Part shown: positions 47,588 through 48,264 of the stretch, one piece after another
Layout: the number at the start of each line of letters is the position of its first letter
How positions within the stretch are numbered: position 1 is the first letter of the stretch
Source: Tilletia caries
Lineage: Eukaryota; Basidiomycota; Exobasidiomycetes; Tilletiales; Tilletiaceae
Direction: 5' to 3'
NCBI GenBank assembly: GCA_032718865.1
Contig: JALUTQ010000030.1
Coordinates: forward strand, 496,001 to 560,000
DNA length: 64,000 nucleotides
Translations under genes and position numbers: made by a program
Notes under the pieces: generated by a model
The model's database searches: none
Told to the model about the DNA's origin: nothing
Seen by the model: only the letters and a program-made list of their open reading frames with translations

Positions 47588-48264
47588 ATGGCTCGCCTCA
47601 CTATCGCCCGAATCTCGACCGGAGGCAAGCCGCCCCGGAAGCCACTTGCACCGAAGGCCTTGAAGACCCCTTCAGCTGTCGATGGTGGTGAGTCTCTCTT
47701 CTTTCCCGTCCTCCCCATCCACCGCCCGCTGATGCTCATTCTGATCCTGCTTCGCGATTATTCTATCCAGCCAAGACACCTTACCTTTGCGAACTCGGAA
47801 AGGATATCGCAGAGCCTGGCGATGCAGGATATGACGATCACCAACATGAGTAGTATGGACTCTGAAGAGACACGATCGTCTTCCAAATGGCTACCTTTCT
47901 AATCAATGTCCATCGTCCGCCCAGTGTTAGCCGAGATCATTCAAGTGAAGCGTTGGCGGCATCGGGTTCAGAAGGCCTTCTTTGGCAAAGCTCCACCGAA
48001 GGATGCTGTGAGTCTCCTTCGTGTTTCCCGCGTATGACTACGGACCTGACAGTTTTGCTCTGCCTTCAGGACATGCCCGCCATGGCTGAGATCTTCCAGC
48101 AGGTGGAAGCGCACCAGATGAGCGAGGAGGCTCTCAAGCAATCCAAGCTCGGGAAAGTCATGAAGAAGATCGCGAAGACCAAGGACGACTACCCACAGGA
48201 GTCCAAGTTCAGGTTCAAGGAGCGCGCGGAGGAGCTTTACAAAAGGTGGATTCACGTTCACTGA
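47588..48264 (+). CDS. Chimeric protein: histone H3-like tail fused to a TFIIS N-terminal (LW) domain
   Basis: Exons 47588-47687, 47925-48007 and 48070-48264; 125 residues, phases 1 and 0. Exon 1 reads MARLTIARISTGGKPPRK then PLAPKALKTPSAVDG, a diverged H3 N-tail (ARTKQTARKSTGGKAPRK); the Lys4 and Lys9 equivalents are gone. The exon ends at exactly the same position and phase as exon 1 of the H3 variant gene at 51992. Exons 2-3 encode WRHRVQKAFFGKAPPKDADM, SKLGKVMKKIAKTKDDYP and FRFKERAEELYKRW. These match the four-helix TFIIS N-terminal/LW domain found in PWWP-family and LEDGF-like chromatin proteins, which bind disordered transcription-factor peptides. Internal sequence in intron 1 (47771-47880) contains open reading frame but is not needed. 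Promoter and intron 1 relate this gene to the H3 variant. A fusion is inferred; transcript evidence would decide. Confidence 0.6.

What the first reader, a model, noticed from the sequence alone, without database searches (positions are those of the whole stretch)
47588..48264. Histone H3-like tail fused to a TFIIS N-terminal/LW domain
Exon 1 encodes a diverged H3 N-terminal tail (STGGKPPRK core) and stops at the same codon position and phase as exon 1 of the nearby H3 variant. Removing introns 47688-47924 and 48008-48069 joins it in phase to a domain with SKLGKVMKKIA and FRFKERAEELYKRW, the pattern of the TFIIS N-terminal/LW fold in PWWP-type chromatin proteins. Both the tail and the H3 variant share a derived K-T pair in place of R26-K27-S28, which suggests that exon 1 was copied from the variant. 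I know of no described protein that joins an H3 tail to this domain. It could act as a free histone-tail mimic tethered to transcription elongation factors.
Basis: partly seen in the sequence, partly recalled or inferred. Interest (0 to 1): 0.9.

Follow-up and report, generated by a model that had tools for sequence, protein, structure and literature searches.

The report
Histone tail fused to elongation-factor domain
In bunt fungi of wheat, the first piece of a histone gene has been joined to pieces of a chromatin-protein gene, giving a small predicted protein with a histone-like tail on a transcription-factor-type domain; two branches of the genus carry the same layout, but some copies look as if they are decaying and no transcript has yet been seen.

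Summary
The window is very probably Tilletia caries. Exon 1 (47588-47687) encodes a diverged H3 tail. The rest duplicates, introns included, three consecutive exons of a PWWP-LW gene on another contig (best stretches 69% protein, 81% DNA identity). A 75-nt, phase 1-1 exon at 47771-47845 was overlooked. T. indica has an annotated 149-aa protein collinear with the four-exon model (tail 30/33, exon 2 20/25, LW 75/91 identical), so this is not a chance splice. T. laevis/caries annotations omit the tail; the T. controversa protein implies a tail frameshift. The LW part scores just above Pfam's Med26 cut-off, and the copy shows constraint (dN 0.15, dS 1.06). Descent of the tail from the neighbouring H3 gene is not supported. 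The H3 K9 position is I (T. caries) or M (T. indica). Likeliest: a histone-tail mimic tethered to LW partners, possibly decaying in the bunt clade. No RNA evidence; structure prediction could not be run.

The parts
47480..47485 (+). TATAAA, a TATA-like box about 100 bases upstream of the ATG (motif recognised from memory, function not tested)
47588..47687 (+). Exon 1: H3-tail-like, MARLTIARISTGGKPPRKPLAPKALKTPSAVDG, ends in phase 1
   Evidence: T. indica P0002 identical at 30 of 33 residues
47688..47770 (+). Intron 1 (83 nt, GTGAGT...CAG); the H3-derived and PWWP-gene-derived halves are inferred to meet in or near it
47771..47845 (+).
   Evidence: DNA alignment to the parent; present in P0001 and P0002
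47846..47924 (+). Intron 2 (79 nt) whose donor reads ATGAGT; the parent has GTGAGT at the same place
   Evidence: the T. laevis/caries annotation P0004 implies the same ATG AGT
47906..47908 (+). ATG in frame with the LW exons; the start used by the LW-only annotation P0003
   Evidence: sequence read
47925..48007 (+). Exon 3: first part of the LW (TFIIS N-terminal-like) domain
48008..48069 (+). Intron 3 (62 nt), same position and phase as the parent intron
48070..48264 (+). Exon 4: rest of the LW domain, ends KRWIHVH and stop; the parent continues after KKWK into a further exon
   Evidence: Pfam Med26 PF08711 over cut-off

Best explanation
A chimeric gene made by exon shuffling. Exon 1 of an H3 paralogue, with its phase-1 intron, was joined to a duplicated DNA block holding exons 5-7 of the PWWP-LW gene (a LEDGF/HRP-2-like architecture). 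The PWWP reader was thereby replaced by a histone-tail-like peptide, while the LW (TFIIS N-terminal, TND-type) domain was kept. Shown: the homology and phase of both halves, a collinear four-part protein in T. indica, and constraint on the LW copy. Inferred: the LW domain still docks on disordered motifs of elongation factors and carries an unstructured H3-like tail that competes with real H3 tails, or with the parent PWWP-LW protein, at transcribed chromatin. In T. caries itself the product is either the exon-2-skipped 125-aa form or already decaying.
For: The LW part finds one other place in the genome, the parent PWWP gene (Pfam PWWP and Med26). The DNA alignment runs through the introns, with conserved intron positions. 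T. indica P0002 carries tail, exon 2 and LW end to end. In the tree the two fusion copies form one clade (100/100) after the T. horrida parents branch, in line with T. horrida being basal (PMC7184893, passages). LW copy against parent: dN 0.15, dS 1.06 by NG86 (dS 0.86 and 1.69 by two other methods, a fourth failed); 0 of 5000 neutral simulations kept as many residues, and 89% had a stop. The tail's 30/33 identity has P 0.0013 at a neutral distance of 0.2 and 0 of 4000 at 0.3, but 0.105 at 0.1. The MED26 N-terminal domain is the best solved-structure match of the LW profile (E 5.8e-4).
Against: No transcript was seen. The exon-2 donor is AT in the window. P0003 and P0004 annotate the LW part without the tail, and P0001 implies a frameshift in the tail. 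No T. walkeri or T. horrida fusion is among the 4 hits of the one fusion search or the 9 hits of the parent search. The Med26 match is marginal for the window (21.1 against 20.6 bits) and below cut-off for P0001 (19.1), which has the same LW sequence. The fold was not modelled: 12 requests were answered 'busy'. Partners and function are inferred from family knowledge only.
Confidence: 0.55

Rival explanations
1. In T. caries and its sisters the gene is a decaying relic: the fusion worked in the ancestor, but the tail or exon 2 has since been broken and little or no fusion protein is made. (These rivals are not mutually exclusive with each other or, for the ancestor, with the best explanation.)
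For: AT instead of GT at the exon-2 donor; the tail frameshift implied by P0001 (inferred by back-translation); tail-less annotations P0003 and P0004.
Against: Exon 2 is symmetric, so skipping keeps the frame. The tail and LW frames are open in the window, and its 91 LW-part residues are identical in P0001, P0003 and P0004. The LW-branch omega is about 0.17 under stated assumptions.
Confidence: 0.3
2. The present-day T. caries product is an LW-only protein started at 47906, and the H3-like exon is an unused leftover. The LW domain alone would act as a competitor of the parent PWWP-LW protein.
For: The in-frame ATG gives P0003 (98 aa, 4 member sequences on 6 contigs). A published bunt-genome annotation pipeline used RNA-seq for splice sites (PMC9172201, passages); whether P0003 comes from that pipeline or rests on reads is unknown.
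Against: In T. indica the annotated model includes the tail. The tail is the best conserved of the three parts.
Confidence: 0.3
3. The tail acts as a natural H3 K9-to-I/M inhibitor of H3K9 methyltransferases, in the way that K9M traps Clr4 and EZHIP imitates K27M, and the LW domain steers it to transcribed genes.
For: AR(I/M)STGG keeps the residues around K9, with I in T. caries and M in T. indica. Two Pre-SET loci exist in the genome. [quoted passage not shown] EZHIP precedent (PMC12713659, passages).
Against: 17 of 24 readable H3-like first exons in this genome also lack K9 (R 9, Q 4, F 4), 17 of 26 if L052 and L058, which keep K, are added, so the change may be inherited drift. F (TTC) to I (ATC) is one base. 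That K-to-I inhibits as K-to-M does is recalled; 'isoleucine' does not occur in the two papers searched.
Confidence: 0.15
4. Chance adjacency of an H3 exon remnant and an LW remnant, wrongly joined by the reader.
For: Both halves belong to multi-copy or duplicated sequence.
Against: The same four-part protein in T. indica; matching intron phases.
Confidence: 0.03

Closest known systems
PWWP-LW (LEDGF/HRP-2-like) chromatin proteins; the parent gene, P0125 (the LEDGF/HRP-2 likeness is recalled)
   Same: LW domain with conserved intron positions; descends from exons 5-7 of this gene
   Different: PWWP and acidic linker replaced by an H3-like tail; C-terminal extension lost
Histone H3 variants of Tilletia
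   Same: N-terminal tail with an STGGK-PRK core, exon 1 ending in phase 1
   Different: No histone fold; one residue shorter before ARxS; K4 and K9 missing
MED26/TFIIS N-terminal domain (PF08711)
   Same: Just above the Pfam cut-off; best solved-structure match; 9 of 10 aligned LW relatives match at E 0.1 or better
   Different: Carried by a 125-150 aa protein with an H3-like tail
EZHIP (K27M-like oncohistone mimic of mammals)
   Same: A histone-tail-like peptide with M (or here I) at the methylated lysine
   Different: K9 and not K27 context; unrelated protein; inhibition not shown

Membership tests
Histone H3 | H3-type N-terminal tail | tested here: inconclusive
   STGGK-PRK core and tblastn E down to 3e-8 to paralogues, but K4 and K9 are missing; no Pfam hit for the 33 aa
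Histone H3 | Histone fold | tested here: not met
   No PF00125 match in P0001, P0002 or the LW part; the 150-aa model has no H3 core
TFIIS N-terminal / Med26 domain (PF08711) | Profile match over the curated cut-off | tested here: met
   21.1 bits against 20.6 for the window's LW part; 26.7 for T. indica P0002; 19.1, below cut-off, for P0001
TFIIS N-terminal / Med26 domain (PF08711) | Helical-bundle fold | not tested
   12 structure requests were answered busy; sequence support only (E 0.011, E 5.8e-4)
PWWP-LW (LEDGF/HRP-2-like) proteins | PWWP domain | tested here: not met
   Present in the parent (64.7 bits), no match in P0001, P0002 or the window's LW part
PWWP-LW (LEDGF/HRP-2-like) proteins | LW/TND domain of common descent | tested here: met
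   Duplicate of parent exons
K-to-M type histone-methyltransferase inhibitors | M or I at the target lysine in the enzyme's recognition motif | tested here: met
   AR-I-STGG (window) and AR-M-STGG (P0002); that I counts as M does is recalled
K-to-M type histone-methyltransferase inhibitors | Inhibits or traps the methyltransferase | not testable with these tools
   needs biochemistry

The most novel reading that the evidence does not exclude
A natural K9-to-I/M H3-tail decoy, built by exon shuffling and tethered by an LW domain to elongation complexes, that keeps H3K9 methylation off transcribed chromatin in Tilletia: a fungal counterpart of EZHIP acting on K9 instead of K27.
Probability: 0.12. 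Interest if true: 0.88.

Novelty: new variant of a known kind. Interest (0 to 1): 0.6.

Why it matters
Known proteins that imitate histone tails mostly do so with short motifs (recalled). Here a tail exon appears to have been taken from a histone gene and put in the place of the domain that reads histone tails, and the layout is shared by T. indica and, with blemishes, the T. caries group. If expressed, it gives a simple natural test of what a free, tethered H3-like tail without K4 and K9 does in a cell. It also sits in a genome with a large set of H3-like genes, most of whose readable first exons lack K9 (17 of 26).

Tried and rejected
Rejected: exon 1 copied from the neighbouring H3 variant (ties among classes, unresolved tree). 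Rejected: chance adjacency (T. indica protein). Considered: another donor for exon 2 in the window. There is no GT inside it, and the next two, at 47850 and 47853, put the LW exons out of frame. Led nowhere: a bacterial-type promoter and terminator scan (none found, not suited to fungi); a search for other copies of the flanks (only the locus itself; the tool skips common words, so this is no proof of single copy); a Chromo-domain search (28 matches, not followed). Paper searches for such a fusion, or for Tilletia histones, showed nothing of the kind, but I saw listings only: 7 of 7 papers; 20 of 22; 0 papers; 12 of 18; 15 of 55; the word 'histone' does not occur in three Tilletia genome papers searched by passage, and in a fourth, on the related Salmacisia, only for CENP-A. 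No fold search was made, since no model could be had. Fusion relatives were looked for with one protein search (13 candidates, 4 hits), so absence in T. walkeri and T. horrida is weak evidence. No T. indica or T. controversa DNA was available; statements on their splice sites and on the T. controversa frameshift are back-translations of protein records. The local alignment also extends, with many gaps, into exon 1 and intron 1; I do not take that part as homology.

Full report
What the window is. The genome (38.1 Mb, 40 contigs) is very probably the Tilletia caries TC1_MSG assembly: its contig C7 is 2,689,501 bases long, the size given for the largest contig of that assembly (PMC10684912, passages; that paper reports 38.18 Mb in 46 contigs, so the contig count differs). 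Close protein hits are from T. controversa, T. laevis, T. caries and T. indica.

The observation. Exon 1, the two LW exons, the intron between them and the in-frame 125-aa join are all in the sequence as stated. The tail matches H3 paralogues of the same genome with E-values down to 3e-8 in a search of 32 chosen loci; in a whole-genome search its 11 matches were itself and 10 H3 loci (E 9e-4 and weaker for the others). The LW part passes the Pfam Med26 cut-off narrowly (21.1 against 20.6 bits).

Where the LW part comes from. In the whole genome the LW protein finds only itself and one other locus, on C33 (4 rows, 2 of them self; the tool scores only its best candidates). My 8-exon join of the C33 gene gives a 377-aa PWWP-LW protein, identical to an annotated T. 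controversa protein and with both Pfam domains over cut-off. The DNA alignment of the fusion locus with this gene is close in the last two exons and can be followed through the introns and the exon before them, so this is a DNA duplication and not a retrocopy. The parent exon before the LW exons ends in phase 1, as H3 exon 1 usually does here: 13 of the 15 other first exons whose donor was recognised by script end in phase 1, and the two exceptions carry frame breaks (the remaining first exons printed there had no donor recognised).

The exon that was missed. The duplicate includes a third exon, 47771-47845, 75 nt, phase 1 on both sides. It is used in the T. controversa protein P0001 and the T. 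indica protein P0002. In the window its donor is ATGAGT, where the parent has GTGAGT. A T. laevis/caries annotation (P0004) encodes ...TNMSM... across this place, which needs the same ATG AGT, so an assembly error is unlikely.

Orthologues. The protein search gave 4 hits among 13 candidates. P0002 of T. indica (149 aa) is collinear with the four-exon model of the window (150 aa): tail 30/33, exon 2 20/25, LW 75/91 identical. P0001 of T. controversa has exon 2 and LW, but its N-terminus is an out-of-frame reading of exon 1 that is back in frame from RKPLAPKALK on; back-translation implies one inserted base in the tail, with an improbable first exon. P0003 and P0004 lack the tail. The 91 LW-part residues of the window are identical in P0001, P0003 and P0004. 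Thus one species shows an intact fusion and the T. caries-controversa-laevis group shows two different blemishes. T. horrida and T. walkeri have the parent, but no fusion was found for them.

Age and constraint. In a tree of 9 LW sequences the fusion copies form a clade (100/100) inside the group of T. caries and T. walkeri parents (81/90), with T. horrida parents outside. They join the T. walkeri parent (95/93), perhaps because the T. caries parent has changed more; the tool warned of long branches. Against its parent the LW copy has dN 0.15 and dS 1.06 (NG86; LWL85 0.15 and 0.86, ML 0.14 and 1.69, YN00 failed). Neutral simulation from the parent never kept 57 of 81 residues in 5000 runs. Part of that constraint belongs to the parent's own branch. 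Taking the T. walkeri parent as ancestor (16 changes of 81), an assumed 186 nonsynonymous sites and half of dS 1.06 gives omega of about 0.17 for the fusion branch.

Origin of exon 1. DNA comparison with 26 H3-like first exons gives ties: 65-69 matches over 86-100 aligned positions for the top ten, the neighbour among them. By protein the K9F class (E 3e-8) and L032, which shares KALKTPS (E 1e-7), score above the neighbour (E 7e-7). The exon-1 tree does not resolve it, and the K9F class could not be put into that tree because its donor was not recognised by the script. The K-T pair is also in L032, and a K-S pair in the K9F class, so it does not point to the neighbour.

What it may do. LW/TND domains bind short disordered motifs of elongation factors (recalled; a 2026 paper on IWS1, PMC13175633, was seen in listing and start of abstract only). 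The fusion lacks the PWWP reader. The simplest reading is a small protein that takes the partner's LW-binding sites and brings an H3-like tail. In the tail the K4 region is altered and K9 is I (T. caries) or M (T. indica) in an otherwise intact AR-x-STGG. H3K9M dominantly blocks H3K9 methylation in fission yeast and traps Clr4 (PMC5030085, passages), and EZHIP is a natural K27M mimic (PMC12713659, passages). The genome has two Pre-SET loci. Against a special meaning: 17 of 24 readable H3-like first exons of this genome lack K9 as well, 17 of 26 with L052 and L058 added, which keep it; several are near-identical copies and three (L040, L042, L046) have broken frames.

Verdict. A genuine chimeric gene of Tilletia, with a corrected structure, an identified LW source, an uncertain H3 source and an uncertain present-day state in T. 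caries. No description of such a fusion was seen in the listings of paper searches, which is a limited look.

Noticed in passing
whole genome G000; loci L029-L059 and window 51992-52091: Large family of H3-like genes: of 24 first exons readable at the K9 position, K 7, R 9, Q 4, F 4; L052 and L058 add two with K. Several copies are near-identical and some have broken frames.
   Followed up: partly
window 45487-47037 (and 44170-45486): KDZ transposase (PF18758, E 4e-41) with CxC1/CxC2 cysteine-cluster matches just below cut-off in the preceding frame, ending about 550 bases before the fusion gene.
   Followed up: partly
L055 and L059: Two loci with MARTKCVAR tails and diverged cores that look like centromeric H3 (CENP-A), judged by eye.
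   Followed up: no
P0127 and P0128 (T. horrida): Two clearly different PWWP-LW proteins named T. horrida (68 of 81 LW residues identical), perhaps two species or a duplication.
   Followed up: no
P0007 (T. horrida): Annotated protein with two H3 tails in a row before one histone core; may be a gene-prediction join.
   Followed up: no
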